Positions 1 to 31,371 of a stretch of 35,410 nucleotides of DNA are shown here, piece after piece. The DNA is from a virus. The position numbers and the translations under genes are program-made. Under the pieces are notes generated by a model that was not told where the DNA came from, ran no database searches, and saw only the letters and a program-made list of their open reading frames with translations. How positions within the stretch are numbered: the first letter of the stretch is position 1; every line of letters begins with the position of its first letter. The stretch lies in IMG/VR virus record IMGVR_UViG_3300010354_000265, positions 1 to 35,410 of that record; one strand, given 5' to 3'.

Positions 1-164
1 ACTGGCAATGCAGCAGGTGTGGCAATTGAGGAATTAGTTGTATTAGCGGTTCCGTCAAGAGATACAGCGACTGTCATTACAGCAGCACTTGCAGGTGTTG
101 CTACGATTGTTGCGGTAGTCATGGCTGCAACCATGGCTAGAGCGATTTTCTTAAATGAATTCAT
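1..164 (-). CDS. Secreted protein with signal peptide (3' end outside window)
   Basis: This gene starts at ATG 164-162, after a GGAG Shine-Dalgarno at 172-169 with four bases between, and stays open for 54 codons until it leaves the window at base 1. The N-terminus is a textbook Sec signal peptide: MNSFKK (two lysines), a hydrophobic stretch of about 16 residues rich in Ala, Met, Val and Thr, then TPASA before AVM, which fits signal peptidase I cleavage after the AxA motif near residue 27. The visible mature part is rich in Thr, Ser, Ala and Val. It lies 27 bases after the terL stop and has a promoter candidate inside the end of terL. Its function is unknown; a protein exported by the infected cell or displayed at its surface is possible. 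Confidence is high that it is coding and low for its role. Confidence 0.8.
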   Translation of the reverse strand, partial: MNSFKKIALAMVAAMTTATIVATPASAAVMTVAVSLDGTANTTNSSIATPAALP

Positions 165-191
165 TTTTCTCCTTTTATTATTCATTTTGAT

Positions 192-1976
192 TTATATTGT
201 TTTTAGTCTATCCAAATAGTCATTTATTGCTTCTATTTGACTAGGATTATATTGTATCACGTTCTCTGGGAGCGTGTCAACTCTACGTGGCTTGTCTCTA
301 AAAGTATGAATCTCTACTTCAAGGTTTTGATCTTTAGGGGTATGTGATATAGCACCAAAAACAGCACCACACACAGCGTCTGCAAGATCTTTAGATTTTT
401 TTCTTGGATGGTCAACTCTATCATTTTTCATAATCTTTAGTTCTGTTAATTCTTCAAAAAGCAGGTCAATTGATGGCATTATAAGTCTTTCTTCATATAC
501 AAGCATGGCCATATCCTCATAATGTTTTTTTGCTACTGATACCGTTTCTGTTCTCATGCCTACCGCTCTTAATTCATTTTGTATATCAAAAGATTGCCAA
601 CGGTCAAATGAGACCATTCCTATATTAAAGCCAAGCCTTCTAAGGTTTTGAATCCATTGTTTTACTTCTGACAGGTTTACTGGACCTTCTACCTTTGGCT
701 CCCACCAGGCTACTGCATCTACAATAACTATCGGAGATATTTGCTGATAGTCTTTAATTACCTGAACATTAACCCACTTATCGACATGAGCAATTGCTAC
801 GGCACACTTGTCATGCTTTTGTGCAAGATCTGCATGCACAAAGTATGTTTTATCTGGATCTGGCTTAAAACTTTCTTCAAATCTTTTAAAATTGTCGAGA
901 GGATTTCTTATGCTCATACAGTTTCTTACCTTTTCTGTTTGCTTAAAAAAAGCATCAGATGAGTAGGTTGGAACACAAGCAAATCTTTGCATTGCATCTC
1001 CAAGATCTGTTAAAAATGCAATTTTAAAATCATCAATTTTTCTAGTTGGATTAACTTCCCACGTAGGTCTTTTTAATGCAAAAACGCCAGGATACCTGTA
1101 AGATTTAATATGGTCTTCCTCCCAAGTAATTTGAAGTTGGTTATCTGGATTGTTTTCACTTTGTAATGGATCAATTATAAACGTATGACTTTTTTGTAAA
1201 ACATCTTTATCTACAACAACTTCGTCATATCTTTTTGAAATAAAGTCTCCTTGATATCTAGGAAATGATAAAAGAACTACCTTCCCAAGATCTGGAAAAC
1301 GAGAATCTACTGATGCACGAAAGGCTTTATATATATTGTCTGCAGTCTTCCCTTGATCATTTCCAGTACCGATTTCCTGAGCAAAACCAGAAATCTCATC
1401 AAGAACTGCCATCATTAAGTTTAAACCTTCGTGAGACTCTCTTTCTGAGTGTCCAGAATAAACTGTAATTGATTTATCGAATTCAATAGAATCTGCTTTA
1501 GCATTAAACTTGCCAGCAAACCAAGGAGATTTCTCAATCTTTGTTTTGAAGCCTTTAAAGAAAACATTCTTAGCCTGTTGTGCGTTAATAGCAACATTGA
1601 TAATATCTATAGCATCCCCTGGTGGCTTACCAAAATACCGTGCTGGATCTTTTAGGCACAACAACTTATAAACAACATATGCACAGGCTACTGTGGATGT
1701 ATGATCTTTTCCACTACCTTTTCCTAGTTGAAGTATGATTTCATTTTTTGTGTACTTATCATAATGTTTGGACCCATCTTGTTCACCAAAAAGATTTTGC
1801 AAATCTTCTTTTTTGTATATTTGGCTCATTGCTTCGACAATATCATATTGAATAGTTGAAAGTTTCGGCTGCCCCAAAAAATCTGCTGATTCAACGAAGG
1901 TTTTTACATCTACTGGTTTTTCAGCAAAATGATCATCTTTTAATGCTTCTAAAAAGTCATCGAACATCGTGGACAA
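192..1976 (-). CDS. terL: Terminase large subunit (DNA-packaging motor ATPase and nuclease)
   Basis: The large terminase pumps phage DNA into the prohead and cuts it. The ATPase half shows a Walker A motif GKGSGKD at residues 85-91 and a Walker B motif VLDE at 191-194. The C-terminal RNase H-like nuclease half shows acidic residues at the expected places: D383 (HADLAQ), D458 (SFDRW) and D530/D533 (KSKDLADAV). The length of 594 residues is normal for the family. The start is uncertain: TTG at 1976 has GAGG nine bases upstream, whereas the ATG at 1967 lacks a well-placed Shine-Dalgarno; both overlap the end of the small subunit gene. The gene stands at the end of the replication region, about 33 kb from the capsid gene, and is followed by the secreted protein gene. 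Confidence 0.95.
   Translation of the reverse strand: MSTMFDDFLEALKDDHFAEKPVDVKTFVESADFLGQPKLSTIQYDIVEAMSQIYKKEDLQNLFGEQDGSKHYDKYTKNEIILQLGKGSGKDHTSTVACAYVVYKLLCLKDPARYFGKPPGDAIDIINVAINAQQAKNVFFKGFKTKIEKSPWFAGKFNAKADSIEFDKSITVYSGHSERESHEGLNLMMAVLDEISGFAQEIGTGNDQGKTADNIYKAFRASVDSRFPDLGKVVLLSFPRYQGDFISKRYDEVVVDKDVLQKSHTFIIDPLQSENNPDNQLQITWEEDHIKSYRYPGVFALKRPTWEVNPTRKIDDFKIAFLTDLGDAMQRFACVPTYSSDAFFKQTEKVRNCMSIRNPLDNFKRFEESFKPDPDKTYFVHADLAQKHDKCAVAIAHVDKWVNVQVIKDYQQISPIVIVDAVAWWEPKVEGPVNLSEVKQWIQNLRRLGFNIGMVSFDRWQSFDIQNELRAVGMRTETVSVAKKHYEDMAMLVYEERLIMPSIDLLFEELTELKIMKNDRVDHPRKKSKDLADAVCGAVFGAISHTPKDQNLEVEIHTFRDKPRRVDTLPENVIQYNPSQIEAINDYLDRLKTI
251..280 (-). promoter_or_regulatory. Promoter candidate inside the 3' end of terL
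   Basis: On the minus strand a perfect -35 hexamer TTGACA (280-275) is followed after 18 bases by TACAAT (256-251), preceded by TGA, so it also has an extended -10. Transcription would start near 244, still inside terL, giving an untranslated leader of about 80 bases before the secreted protein at 164. It may give that gene expression independent of the terminase. Confidence 0.5.
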
Positions 1977-2496
1977 TTGTTATAACCTCATTGTCTTTTG
2001 CAATATCAGACAGCCTTCTCATAATTTCATCACGAATTTGTGGATATTCAGATGCTATGTCTCTAAGTATTCCCATAAGAACTTCTTGTCTTCTTTCAAT
2101 CTGAACCATTTCCTCTGCTAGTTCTTTATTTTCTAGTAGCCCAGCCTTTTGCAACATATCAATTCTCTTAGACTCAATATCCATAACTAATTTAATTGCA
2201 GCAGTTTTGGCACCAAGATTATTTGTCATCGATGCTTCATCTATAACTTCATATGATTTAGATATAAGTTTGCTGTAGTGTGTATCTGCTGCAGCAAGTG
2301 CTTCTTTAGCACGAGCACGAATAGCATCATTGGCAGATGCCATGACTTTCCATTCATTGATATAACCTACAACGGTTTGCCTTGGTATTGCTAACTCTTT
2401 GGAAATTTGTGTTGGATCATTTCCTTTTAGATATTCTCCAACAACAAGGTTTACCTGATCTAAATGTTTTACTAAATCCTCTTCAGGGCTTGTCAT
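1957..2496 (-). CDS. Probable terminase small subunit
   Basis: The 179-residue protein has a helix-turn-helix near residues 20-50 (ISKELAIPRQTVVGYINEW) followed by a long, charged, mostly helical region, the usual plan of terminase small subunits, which recognise phage DNA and regulate the large subunit. It lies directly upstream of terL and overlaps it by 20 bases, which is the strongest support. It overlaps the DUF3310 gene by 14 bases. The C-terminal part (residues about 120-165) has the heptad-like charge pattern of an oligomerisation helix. It could instead be another HTH protein, but position and architecture favour the terminase role. Confidence 0.75.
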   Translation of the reverse strand: MTSPEEDLVKHLDQVNLVVGEYLKGNDPTQISKELAIPRQTVVGYINEWKVMASANDAIRARAKEALAAADTHYSKLISKSYEVIDEASMTNNLGAKTAAIKLVMDIESKRIDMLQKAGLLENKELAEEMVQIERRQEVLMGILRDIASEYPQIRDEIMRRLSDIAKDNEVITIVHDVR

Positions 2497-2728
2497 AATT
2501 CCCCTCTAGTCTTTTAATTTCATCTTGTATATAAAAGATTGCCTTTTTTAAATCTTCAATATGGGTTTTTTCATTTTTTAGTCCTGCCCTCCATAAATAC
2601 TTAAAGGCATTTCCAATGTTAAAATTTCTATGACGAGTAATCTGTATACACTCTACACCAGACGGATCGCTTGTATAATGTTCTGGATGATTAACTTGAT
2701 CAACTGTAATATTAAATTTCTCTGTCAT
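2483..2728 (-). CDS. DUF3310 family protein
   Basis: The 81-residue protein contains VNHPEHYTS near the N-terminus, then VECIQITRHRNFNIGNAFKYLWRAG and a lysine-rich helix with DLKKAIFYIQ. This is the signature of DUF3310 (often annotated as a nucleotide kinase-like or MazG-associated protein of phages); the biochemical role is not established. The start is placed at ATG 2728 rather than ATG 2749 because GGAG lies ten bases before 2728. The gene overlaps the end of the small membrane protein by 17 bases and the start of the terminase small subunit by 14, so translation is likely coupled. Confidence 0.8.
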   Translation of the reverse strand: MTEKFNITVDQVNHPEHYTSDPSGVECIQITRHRNFNIGNAFKYLWRAGLKNEKTHIEDLKKAIFYIQDEIKRLEGNYDKP

Positions 2729-2861
2729 AGTCACGTCGCTCCATTTCATCTATATCAAACTCAAATGTATCTGGTATAGTCTTTAATGCATACAGGGCAT
2801 AAACTATTCCAAATGCACCAAAAATAGTTAGCACTGCTAATAATTTTTTTATAGTACTCAT
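2712..2861 (-). CDS. Small single-pass membrane protein
   Basis: A 49-residue protein starting at ATG 2861 behind a near-perfect Shine-Dalgarno (AAGGAGGT, five bases before the start). A longer reading frame upstream is open but is occupied by the HTH gene in another frame, so the short start is preferred. Residues about 7-26 (LLAVLTIFGAFGIVYALYAL) form one transmembrane helix; the remainder is a short acidic tail rich in Asp, Glu and Arg. Its ATG overlaps the TGA of the HTH gene (ATGA). Function is unknown. Holin or lysis-accessory roles can be imagined for a protein of this shape, but no endolysin lies nearby, so no role is assigned. Confidence 0.7.
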   Translation of the reverse strand: MSTIKKLLAVLTIFGAFGIVYALYALKTIPDTFEFDIDEMERRDYDREI

Positions 2862-13742: not shown

Positions 13743-13771
13743 ATGGTATCAAACTCTTTGATACATGTCAA
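13743..13771 (-). promoter_or_regulatory. Promoter heading the replication operon
   Basis: TTGACA (13771-13766) and TACCAT (13748-13743) on the minus strand are 17 bases apart, with TGA before the -10. The start site would lie near 13736, just before the CGGAGGA of gene 13724. A 19-base palindrome fills the spacer. Confidence 0.6.
13746..13764. promoter_or_regulatory. Palindromic operator candidate
   Basis: GTATCAAA and TTTGATAC form a perfect 8-bp inverted repeat with a 3-base centre. It occupies almost the whole spacer between the -35 and -10 hexamers and overlaps the -10. A dimeric regulator bound here would block RNA polymerase. The MerR-like protein encoded directly upstream is an obvious candidate, without proof. 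Confidence 0.55.
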
Positions 13772-13785
13772 GCCACTAAATTTAA

Positions 13786-14328
13786 TTATATACTTTCTGA
13801 CCAAACTGGTATAAATCTTCCATCTTCCGTTCTCGTATAAGTAATTATACCACCGCCCATTCTTCGTGTCAACTCTGCTTTACTAGGCGTAATATCATTT
13901 GTAACTAATTTATCTTTTCTAGGTCTACCTATATGGTATGTAGCAAGAATATCTCTAATTTCAAAAATTTGAGATTCTGAGTAATATGATCTCACCTGCC
14001 ACCCTCGTGCACCACCCTTTTGTGATCCAGTTGGAAATGGAATAATCCCACGCTTCATTAAAGATGGCATATATTTTTTATGCCTATTAACAAGATCTGC
14101 TGTTTCTCCAACTGTATATGCTCTTTCACGATGTTTTTTAAAATCACTTATCAAACAACTTTCCAGTCTATCTTGTGTTATATTATAAATAGACATAATC
14201 CCATTAGATCTATTTATATGGTGCACCCTAACTAAATCTTTATTTAAAAACCAAACTTTTTTATTTCCAGGTATTACAGGGGCGCTATTGTACTCTTCGC
14301 TAGAGACTTTTCCTTTTCTAGTAGCCAT
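13786..14328 (-). CDS. MerR-like DNA-binding protein
   Basis: The 180-residue protein contains a winged-helix segment of MerR or excisionase type at about residues 71-97 (YTVGETADLVNRHKKYMPSL, then MKRGIIPFP), followed by a likely recognition wing (GWQVRSYYSESQIFEIRDIL) and a basic RPRKDK patch. The N-terminal 60 residues form a small beta-rich domain. It would bind DNA as a regulator or an architectural factor. A strong Shine-Dalgarno (GGAGGGG) precedes ATG 14328. It lies between the tail genes and the replication operon and its 3' end carries a promoter for that operon, which suggests a control role there. Confidence 0.72.
   Translation of the reverse strand: MATRKGKVSSEEYNSAPVIPGNKKVWFLNKDLVRVHHINRSNGIMSIYNITQDRLESCLISDFKKHRERAYTVGETADLVNRHKKYMPSLMKRGIIPFPTGSQKGGARGWQVRSYYSESQIFEIRDILATYHIGRPRKDKLVTNDITPSKAELTRRMGGGIITYTRTEDGRFIPVWSESI
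13844..13872 (-). promoter_or_regulatory. Perfect consensus promoter inside the MerR-like gene
   Basis: TTGACA (13872-13867), a 17-base spacer and TATAAT (13849-13844) match the sigma70 consensus at every position, and TGG precedes the -10. It lies in the last 30 codons of the MerR-like gene and reads towards the replication genes, with a start site near 13837. The leader to ATG 13724 would be about 113 bases and would contain the downstream promoter and operator. Confidence 0.65.
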
Positions 14329-30260: not shown

Positions 30261-30590
30261 TTAACTGTTTGTTACAAAACTGCCTACTAGCGATGCATCA
30301 GTTAATTTGATTCCAGATGCTTCTTCGACAATCTTGTATACAGTTGGAAGATCTAGATTTTCTTCTAGAGCCTCCATGTCTTCTGCTAACTCAGGCTTGT
30401 ATTGCTTCATTGCAATAGCAACACACTCCATAAGTAGATTCATTGATTTTTCATTATCTTCCGCCACAGCAGCGATACCCTCAAACTTAGACATAAACTG
30501 ACGAAGTAGAGAGATCTTCAAAGGGCGTACCTTTATTGTTGTTCCATCGATTAATGTTACCGTTTTTTCTTCATGTACGGTAGTAGCCAT
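30261..30590 (-). CDS. Tail assembly chaperone, short paralogue
   Basis: The 109-residue protein aligns along its whole length with the first 100 residues of the next gene upstream: TLIDGTTIKVRPLKISLLRQ matches SLVDGEEITLTPLKIKYLRE, and NLDLPTVYKIVEEASGIKL matches NLDLPSIYKILDIAAGIKV. It lies directly before the tape measure, the position of the lambda gpG-type chaperones that coat the tape measure during tail assembly. It contains only the N-terminal domain and so corresponds to gpG without the T extension. It has a strong Shine-Dalgarno (AAGGAGG) and its own extended -10 promoter, which would allow higher expression than the long form. Confidence 0.78.
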   Translation of the reverse strand: MATTVHEEKTVTLIDGTTIKVRPLKISLLRQFMSKFEGIAAVAEDNEKSMNLLMECVAIAMKQYKPELAEDMEALEENLDLPTVYKIVEEASGIKLTDASLVGSFVTNS

Positions 30591-30635: not shown

Positions 30636-31322
30636 TTATTTTTTGGTGAGATCCTCATAGTCTAATCCCAAACCAATACCAAATCCAGCCTGTTGTGCAT
30701 TAACACCTTGTAGGGCCACAATATCATTTGCATCTTTAGCCTTGCCCTTGCTGAATACTCTAGCCTTCATATCTTCCCAAGCATTAGATTTATTTGACTG
30801 CTTGTCTAGATCTACCCCTTGAATTGCAGCCAAGAACTTCTTTTCAGAGTAGTCTAGTTCTCTTTTTATTTCTAGTGTAGCAAGCATTTCTGGCATAGAA
30901 AGAGATGTTTCCAATTCTTCATAGTCTTTCCAAATTCCTAATAAAAATGTTTCTGATTCTAGTTTAGCCAAATCTAGTGTTTCCCATGTAGAGCCACTTT
31001 CGGTTGCCTGATTTTTGACAGATTTATCAGATTTGTCACTTACCTTAATACCTGCTGCAATATCTAATATTTTATAAATTGATGGCAAATCTAAATTATC
31101 TTCTAAATCTTCAATTGTTTTTATTCTAGGACAATACTGTTGCATAGTTATTCTAGCGCATTCAGATAGTTTAGTTATTGCATCATCGTCATCTTTTGCA
31201 TCTTTAACTAATTCAAATGCTGACATAAACTCACGGAGGTATTTTATTTTTAATGGAGTTAAGGTTATTTCTTCTCCATCTACCAGTGATATTTTTGCTG
31301 TATCATATATTTTTGTTGCCAT
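30636..31322 (-). CDS. Tail assembly chaperone, long paralogue
   Basis: The 228-residue protein has the chaperone N-domain (residues 1-100, shared with the short paralogue), a Ser/Thr/Lys linker (about 97-112), and a C-terminal extension (LESETFLLGIWKDYEELETS, EIKRELDYSEKKFLAAIQGV) that would correspond to the T part of lambda gpGT, the part that recruits major tail protein. The frame is continuous, so no ribosomal frameshift is required. ATG 31322 is preferred over an ATG 33 bases earlier, because that one lies inside the terminator and promoter. No Shine-Dalgarno is present; a TATACT -10 ends eight bases upstream, so the message is probably leaderless or nearly so. Confidence 0.78.
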   Translation of the reverse strand: MATKIYDTAKISLVDGEEITLTPLKIKYLREFMSAFELVKDAKDDDDAITKLSECARITMQQYCPRIKTIEDLEDNLDLPSIYKILDIAAGIKVSDKSDKSVKNQATESGSTWETLDLAKLESETFLLGIWKDYEELETSLSMPEMLATLEIKRELDYSEKKFLAAIQGVDLDKQSNKSNAWEDMKARVFSKGKAKDANDIVALQGVNAQQAGFGIGLGLDYEDLTKK

Positions 31323-31330
31323 TACATATA

Positions 31331-31339
31331 AGTATACCA
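31331..31339 (-). promoter_or_regulatory. Extended -10 promoter for the long chaperone
   Basis: TGGTATACT on the minus strand, eight bases before ATG 31322 and directly after the U-tract of the terminator. The start site would be within about two bases of the start codon. Confidence 0.5.
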
Positions 31340-31371
31340 AAACAGAAAAGCCCAACCTTGTGGGCTGGGCT
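31340..31371 (-). terminator. Rho-independent terminator after the major tail protein gene
   Basis: On the minus strand AGCCCAGCC pairs with GGTTGGGCT (one G-U pair) around a five-base loop (31371-31349), followed by TTTCTGTTTT. This strong stem with its U-rich tail ends transcription about 20 bases after the major tail protein stop, which would keep that abundant message separate from the chaperone genes. Confidence 0.85.

What the first reader, a model, noticed from the sequence alone, without database searches (positions are those of the whole stretch)
1..164. Secreted protein next to the terminase
A Sec signal peptide with an AxA cleavage site, a Shine-Dalgarno and a separate promoter inside terL identify a gene whose product leaves the cytoplasm. 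Phage proteins exported in late infection and not part of lysis are uncommon; possibilities include a surface-exclusion factor, an adhesin-like decoration or a modifier of the host envelope. The gene is cut by the window edge and no lysis gene is seen near it.
Basis: partly seen in the sequence, partly recalled or inferred. Interest (0 to 1): 0.6.

Follow-up and report, generated by a model that had tools for sequence, protein, structure and literature searches.

The report
Swappable exported phage surface protein
The cut gene at the window edge encodes a protein that lake phages of Actinobacteria very probably export from the infected cell; its promoter and export signal stay put while the outer part is traded between phages, which suggests that it re-dresses the host's surface.

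Summary
On the minus strand, 164..3 is the 5' end of a gene with a Shine-Dalgarno, a Sec signal peptide (AxA, no lipobox) and its own promoter inside terL; the promoter is fixed at synonymous sites across relatives. Relatives give the whole protein: mostly 350-480 aa, modelled as signal peptide, two Ig-like domains, a 112-residue helix and a basic tail. It starts 12-48 nt behind terL in clade I relatives. Pfam, NCBIfam, PHROGs, PADLOC and cultured phages show no relative.

New point: the exported part is a recombination cassette. Its similarity does not follow the adjacent terL (rho 0.08), while genes 4.5 kb apart across it stay linked (0.42). At least seven ectodomains follow similar signal peptides, and the gene occurs at 85-93% DNA identity in phages whose TerL is only 56-59% identical. 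The window probably ends here because assemblies break at this gene.

'Late' is unsupported, and 'no lysis gene near' is an edge effect: a CHAP endolysin lies about 4 kb downstream in the identical relative. Best explanation (0.42): an infected-cell surface protein for superinfection exclusion or receptor masking. Function and host origin are untested.

The parts
3..164 (-). 5' part of the exported-protein gene (54 codons); the rest lies beyond the contig edge
   Evidence: open frame; homologues complete in relatives
84..164 (-). signal peptide MNSFKKIALAMVAAMTTATIVATPASA, probable cleavage ASA|A
   Evidence: kept in relatives across exchanged ectodomains; rule
1..62 (-). start of the exchangeable exported part: 12 differences in 62 nt from a contig that is otherwise identical over 8,914 nt
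169..174 (-). Shine-Dalgarno AAGGAG
   Evidence: sequence; similar sites in relatives
251..280 (-). promoter TTGACA-18-TACAAT with extended -10, inside terL
   Evidence: codon fixation in 109 relatives; recurrence
192..1976 (-). terL, directly upstream of the gene; end of the replication/recombination block
   Evidence: PHROGs terminase; relatives
1957..2496 (-). gene upstream of terL (phrog_9507; by position probably small terminase), used as linkage control

Best explanation
The gene encodes a protein that the phage-infected actinobacterium exports through its own Sec machinery. SHOWN BY SEQUENCE: conserved signal peptide, promoter and SD; in the main type two Ig-like domains, a long Ala-rich helix and a basic tail (model); one copy in each of 19 contigs searched; position directly behind terL in one phage clade and 15-20 kb from it in another; a cassette in which the exported part is replaced by recombination while promoter, start of the gene and flanking genes stay. 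INFERRED: the helix and basic tail (other C-termini in other types) hold the protein at the cell wall and the Ig-like part stands out from the surface. There it masks or alters host surface structures, so that competing phages are kept out of the infected cell (superinfection exclusion) and progeny are not lost on its debris. Exchange of the ectodomain is driven by which competitors or host surface types are common, comparable to the types of CwpV in C. difficile. The host-type promoter fits production from early or middle infection on.
For: Export signal kept across all ectodomain types. Ig-like fold model (pLDDT 82), best Z to invasin and FdeC; the second type matches S-layer protein SbsC and adhesins best. 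Ectodomain decoupled from terL 20 nt away (rho 0.08) while flanks stay linked across it (0.42); identity falls at the gene and recovers behind it. Shared at 85-93% DNA identity between clades with TerL 56-59% and distant tails, as expected for a tool aimed at a shared host and not for a virion part. Purifying selection within classes (pN/pS about 0.25). Dedicated conserved promoter. Precedents: CwpV (PMC4737114), T5 Llp (PMC9586334).
Against: No experiment on any member. No known wall anchor or lipobox; retention at the surface is assumed. In 13 genomes ectodomain type did not follow five tail-tip proteins, so no match to the phage's own receptor-binding proteins is seen. Neighbours include lysis genes, which fits a lysis role as well. 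Host relatives could not be tested.
Confidence: 0.42

Rival explanations
1. Envelope-opening helper: exported together with the PA14-type protein behind it, and next to holin-like proteins and a CHAP endolysin, it loosens or displaces the host's outer layer so that lysis and release work. It varies because host surface layers vary.
For: Exported PA14/coiled-coil protein, small membrane proteins and CHAP endolysin within about 2-6 kb downstream; in the second clade a subtilase and, in L032, a CHAP-like gene lie a few kb upstream of it.
Against: No enzymatic domain; own host-type promoter; the gene is decoupled from the CHAP endolysin in similarity (rho 0.16).
Confidence: 0.2
2. Released adhesin or decoy: the protein leaves the cell, or is freed at lysis, and acts outside, for example by coating free virions or neighbouring cells.
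For: No recognised anchor; Ig-like domains and a long helix are common in adhesins.
Against: Nothing specific supports release; the common basic C-terminus kept across otherwise unrelated ectodomains suggests attachment.
Confidence: 0.14
3. Virion protein: a tail or head decoration with a hydrophobic N-terminus that is not used for export.
For: Many phage Ig-like proteins are structural, and the viral fold search returns several.
Against: Canonical signal peptide kept while the rest changes; not in the structural block; shared by clades with distant tails; no coupling to tail-tip proteins.
Confidence: 0.1
4. Captured host surface protein kept for host physiology or protection from grazers, not for phage competition.
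For: S-layer and adhesin-like folds; several C-terminal types resemble, from memory only, surface proteins of lake Actinobacteria (a lead, not a test).
Against: Two genome scans found no host relative, though with narrow patterns.
Confidence: 0.07
5. The apparent swapping is an assembly artefact: assemblers jump between phages at the conserved start of the gene.
For: Contigs end here in excess: 14 of 79 within 300 nt behind terL, about 3.6 expected, P about 2e-5; the window's own difference lies in the last 62 nt of a contig.
Against: Genes on both sides stay correlated across the gene and identity recovers behind it; swaps lie inside long contigs of different metagenomes; ectodomain types form whole intact genes.
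Confidence: 0.07

Closest known systems
CwpV of Clostridioides difficile (PMC4737114)
   Same: Exported surface protein with a constant export part and exchangeable ectodomain types; paper reports phage protection that resembles superinfection exclusion.
   Different: Host-encoded and phase-variable there; phage-encoded here, no such switch looked for; no cell-wall-binding family recognised here by Pfam.
Llp of phage T5 (PMC9586334)
   Same: Phage-encoded exported protein of a lytic phage that acts at the surface of the infected cell (proposed here, shown there).
   Different: Llp is a small lipoprotein that jams one receptor; this is a 350-480 aa Ig-like protein without lipobox and not next to a receptor-binding gene.
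Bacterial Ig-like surface proteins and S-layer proteins (invasin, FdeC, SbsC)
   Same: Tandem Ig-like domains by model comparison.
   Different: No sequence family match above cut-off; no beta-barrel or SLH anchor recognised; a shared fold shows no function.
Stanwilliamsviridae phages of Streptomyces (e.g. Genie2, MK359332.1)
   Same: TerL about 54% identical; same order DnaE, MazG, RecA, Cas4-like, RuvC, TerL.
   Different: There TerL is followed by an HNH endonuclease and tRNAs, not by an exported protein; no relative of this protein in cultured phages.

Membership tests
T5 Llp-type superinfection-exclusion lipoproteins | lipobox with cysteine at the cleavage site | tested here: not met
   ASA|A site; no cysteine in the ectodomain of the L008 homologue
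T5 Llp-type superinfection-exclusion lipoproteins | blocks a phage receptor and excludes superinfection | not testable with these tools
   needs experiment
CwpV | CWB2 cell-wall-binding modules | tested here: not met
   no Pfam match above cut-off in any type scanned
CwpV | constant export part with exchangeable ectodomain types | tested here: met
CwpV | antiphage activity | not testable with these tools
   needs experiment
Big_1 / invasin-intimin adhesins | Ig-like domains of this fold | tested here: met
   model, Z 11.8 to invasin over 176 residues at rmsd 7.3, Z 10.7 to FdeC over 179 at rmsd 3.9
Big_1 / invasin-intimin adhesins | Pfam Big_1 above its cut-off | tested here: not met
   only a sub-threshold Big_1 match in the L141 type (21.9 bits, cut-off 34.9)
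S-layer proteins | SLH or other recognised wall-anchoring domain | tested here: not met
   Pfam and NCBIfam scans
S-layer proteins | self-assembly into a lattice on cells | not testable with these tools
   needs experiment
Virion structural Ig-like proteins | encoded in the structural block and inherited with the tail genes | tested here: not met
   behind terL, after the replication block; no correlation with five tail-tip proteins in 13 genomes
Virion structural Ig-like proteins | present in virions | not testable with these tools
   needs proteomics
Phage lysis proteins | lytic enzyme or holin features | tested here: not met
   no enzymatic domain match; a single N-terminal hydrophobic segment, in the signal peptide
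Targets of diversity-generating retroelements | variation confined to template adenines | tested here: not met
   the window allele difference is not adenine-specific and whole domains are replaced
Targets of diversity-generating retroelements | reverse transcriptase and template repeat nearby | not tested
   no dedicated search was made

The most novel reading that the evidence does not exclude
Abundant, apparently lytic phages of freshwater Actinobacteria carry a dedicated locus, promoter plus signal peptide plus interchangeable Ig-like ectodomain, with which they re-coat their host cell. The ectodomains circulate as a shared pool among distantly related phages of the same hosts, an analogue of antigenic or S-layer cassette variation that belongs to the virus and shields the infected cell against competitors.
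Probability: 0.3. Interest if true: 0.82.

Novelty: new variant of a known kind. Interest (0 to 1): 0.62.

Why it matters
Proteins that a phage exports are seldom studied outside lysis. Here one is kept next to a core gene in one phage clade and present in a second, has a conserved promoter, and is exchanged far more freely than its neighbours, which suggests strong selection at the surface of infected cells. If it excludes competitors, phage-phage competition in lakes could be tested gene by gene. The locus also offers a reason why many assemblies of these phages break at this point.

Tried and rejected
Two scans of bacterial and archaeal genomes for host relatives found nothing, but the tool used only two narrow patterns each time, so a host origin stays open. 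Host genomes could not be drawn by kinship for a virus record or by name. INPHARED phages: no relative of the 54 residues or of the full L008 homologue. Pfam, NCBIfam, PHROGs, PADLOC: nothing above cut-off for the protein. PDB by sequence: nothing convincing. Foldseek of the main type ranks complement C3/C5 highest with low TM-scores: taken as generic Ig-like similarity. A simple periodicity test of the long helix showed no clear heptad signal, so oligomerisation is not claimed. My first promoter patterns had the wrong spacing and were repeated (then 66, 67). The second structure model is poor in its first 250 residues and is used only for its C-terminal half. Papers: whiB-bearing freshwater actinophages and two cultured Nanopelagicales phages of another family are described; the terms I searched in them gave no secreted protein of this kind.

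Full report
What the window shows. The window is a complete IMG/VR record of 35,410 bases, so the gene is cut by the end of the contig. On the minus strand a reading frame starts at 164 and runs to the edge: MNSFKKIALAMVAAMTTATIVATPASA|AVMTVAVSLDG.... Shine-Dalgarno AAGGAG lies at 174-169. A consensus promoter, TTGACA-18-TACAAT with TG before the -10, lies at 280-251 inside the 3' end of terL. Such sites as a class are not enriched here, so conservation had to decide: among 109 distinct terL ends the codons that make up the -35 and -10 boxes are fixed (57/57 GTT, 93/93 GAC, 90/90 GTG, 93/93 ATA, 65/65 CAA, 88/88 TAT, each among sequences that keep the residue) while most neighbouring codons vary. 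The exact motif TTGAC-N13..17-TGnTAnnAT ends 68-93 nt upstream of the gene in 67 of 104 relatives, with variants in many of the rest. In the window the motif occurs three times (0.25 expected): here and twice at 13.74-13.87 kb, upstream of the helicase/primase/polymerase block (which genes these two serve is by position only). This points to host RNA polymerase and gives no support to late-only expression.

The whole gene. Of 599 candidate stretches in viral contigs, 481 encode a relative of the 54 residues; none is found in 50,697 cultured phage records. Complete ones are mostly 350-480 aa, and longer types of about 536-587 aa stand in the same place. In the clade I loci whose contig runs far enough to show it, the gene starts 12-48 nt behind the terL stop and opens with M[NK]S[FL]KK; a few loci end before or within the start, and one (L159) has a disrupted frame. 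Nineteen viral contigs that were searched whole hold one copy each. A model of the close relative from contig IMGVR_UViG_3300047457_000298 (mean pLDDT 82) shows signal peptide, two Ig-like domains, a single helix of 112 residues and a basic tail. The Ig part matches invasin (Z 11.8) and FdeC (Z 10.7) best among many Ig-like chains, a similarity of fold only. Pfam, NCBIfam, PHROGs and PADLOC have no family for it.

The surroundings. The contig just named shares 8,914 nt without one difference with the window and shows the missing side. Behind the gene follow a protein with its own signal-peptide-like start and PA14/coiled-coil features, small proteins, and a homologue of the CHAP-type endolysin about 4.2 kb from terL. 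In 24 loci a relative of that endolysin lies 2.0-6.3 kb downstream. The statement that no lysis gene is near is therefore an edge effect. TerL is about 54% identical to Stanwilliamsviridae Streptomyces phages with the same gene order, but there TerL is followed by an HNH endonuclease and tRNAs. A WhiB gene in five of six relatives searched marks an actinobacterial host; WhiB as an actinophage marker is from PMC6802176 and PMC10202952.

The exported part is a recombination cassette. Window and the otherwise identical contig part company inside this gene, right behind the signal peptide: 12 differences in the last 62 nt. Over 80 distinct loci, pairwise identity of the ectodomain hardly correlates with that of TerL next to it (rho 0.08), whereas TerS-TerL gives 0.85, Cas4-RuvC 0.82, and TerL with an Ntn-hydrolase gene about 4.5 kb behind terL 0.42. 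Loci with TerL 97-99% identical can carry ectodomains at 19-47%, and loci with TerL 75-86% identical can share ectodomains at 93-99%. In L040/L103 and L141/L156 DNA identity falls at the gene and recovers behind it. At least seven ectodomain types follow similar signal peptides; the 587-aa L141 type has an unrelated ectodomain but the common C-terminus, and the 563-aa L089 type has another C-terminus. Within classes the sequence is under purifying selection (median pN/pS about 0.25 for the Ig domains, 0.09 for TerL). A second phage clade with TerL at only 56-59% identity carries the gene 15-20 kb from terL; its DNA is 85-93% identical to clade I copies, although its main tail protein matches the window's at only 25-37%. 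In 13 genomes the ectodomain does not follow five tail-tip proteins (rho -0.18 to 0.15). Contigs end within 300 nt behind terL about four times more often than expected (14 of 79, P about 2e-5), so the window's edge is probably a consequence of this locus.

Mechanism. The transferable unit behaves as something aimed at a shared host rather than at a particular virion, and it is exported. The best-supported explanation is an infected-cell surface protein that masks or alters host surface structures and keeps competing phages out, with exchange of the exposed part under selection by the common competitors or host types. Shown: gene, promoter, signal peptide, fold model, exchange, presence in two clades. 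Inferred: cleavage, wall attachment, orientation, timing and function. Rivals are an envelope-opening helper for lysis, a released adhesin or decoy, a virion protein, a host gene kept for other reasons, and assembly error; the last is contradicted by linkage of the flanks across the gene.

Comparison with the known. It resembles CwpV of C. difficile in plan (constant export part, exchangeable exposed part; PMC4737114) and T5 Llp in proposed role (PMC9586334), but tested defining features of both are not met: no CWB2 anchor, no lipobox. It is filed as a new variant of phage-encoded exported surface proteins, of an undescribed family.

Limits. No host genome could be examined with adequate sensitivity, no SignalP was available, relatives come from metagenome assemblies capped at 80 per scan, and pairs of loci are not independent, so the correlations are descriptive. 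The linkage to tail-tip genes rests on 13 genomes.

Noticed in passing
L008:7162-9333; L022:7277-9406; L006:7489-9231: Directly behind the exported-protein gene lies a second probably exported protein with a coiled coil and a PA14 domain (PA14 above cut-off in L022 and L006); in L008 the frame opens with a signal-peptide-like stretch upstream of the listed start.
   Followed up: partly
L028:3628-4755; L032:3990-4964: In the second phage clade a probably exported subtilase (Peptidase_S8, weak mycosin-like match) and a thioredoxin-like gene lie just upstream of the exported-protein gene.
   Followed up: partly
L094:14210-14734: A small protein with the N-terminal half of a proteasome-type Ntn hydrolase follows the endolysin in many of these phages (54 loci).
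   Followed up: partly
window 13743-13771 and 13844-13872, minus strand: Two further extended -10 promoters of the same type as the one in terL (three exact matches in the window, 0.25 expected by shuffling), upstream of the replication genes.
   Followed up: no
window 30261-30590 and 30636-31355, minus strand: Two neighbouring genes before the tape measure gene both match phrog_10504: tandem paralogues, possibly tail assembly chaperones.
   Followed up: no
window 2712-2858, minus strand: Small protein with an N-terminal hydrophobic segment (MSTIKKLLAVLTIFGAFGIVYALYAL...) between the RuvC and terminase genes.
   Followed up: no
IMG/VR contigs, 0-300 nt behind terL: Assembly-break hotspot: 14 of 79 contigs chosen by TerL end here; long genomes of this phage group are probably under-recovered for this reason.
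   Followed up: yes
L164:5090-5189 and relatives: Some ectodomain types end in a different C-terminus with two cysteines (TITCVKGKLTKKVTAVAPVCPTGYKKK), others in KQI-ALQKL amphipathic ends; these may be alternative anchors.
   Followed up: partly
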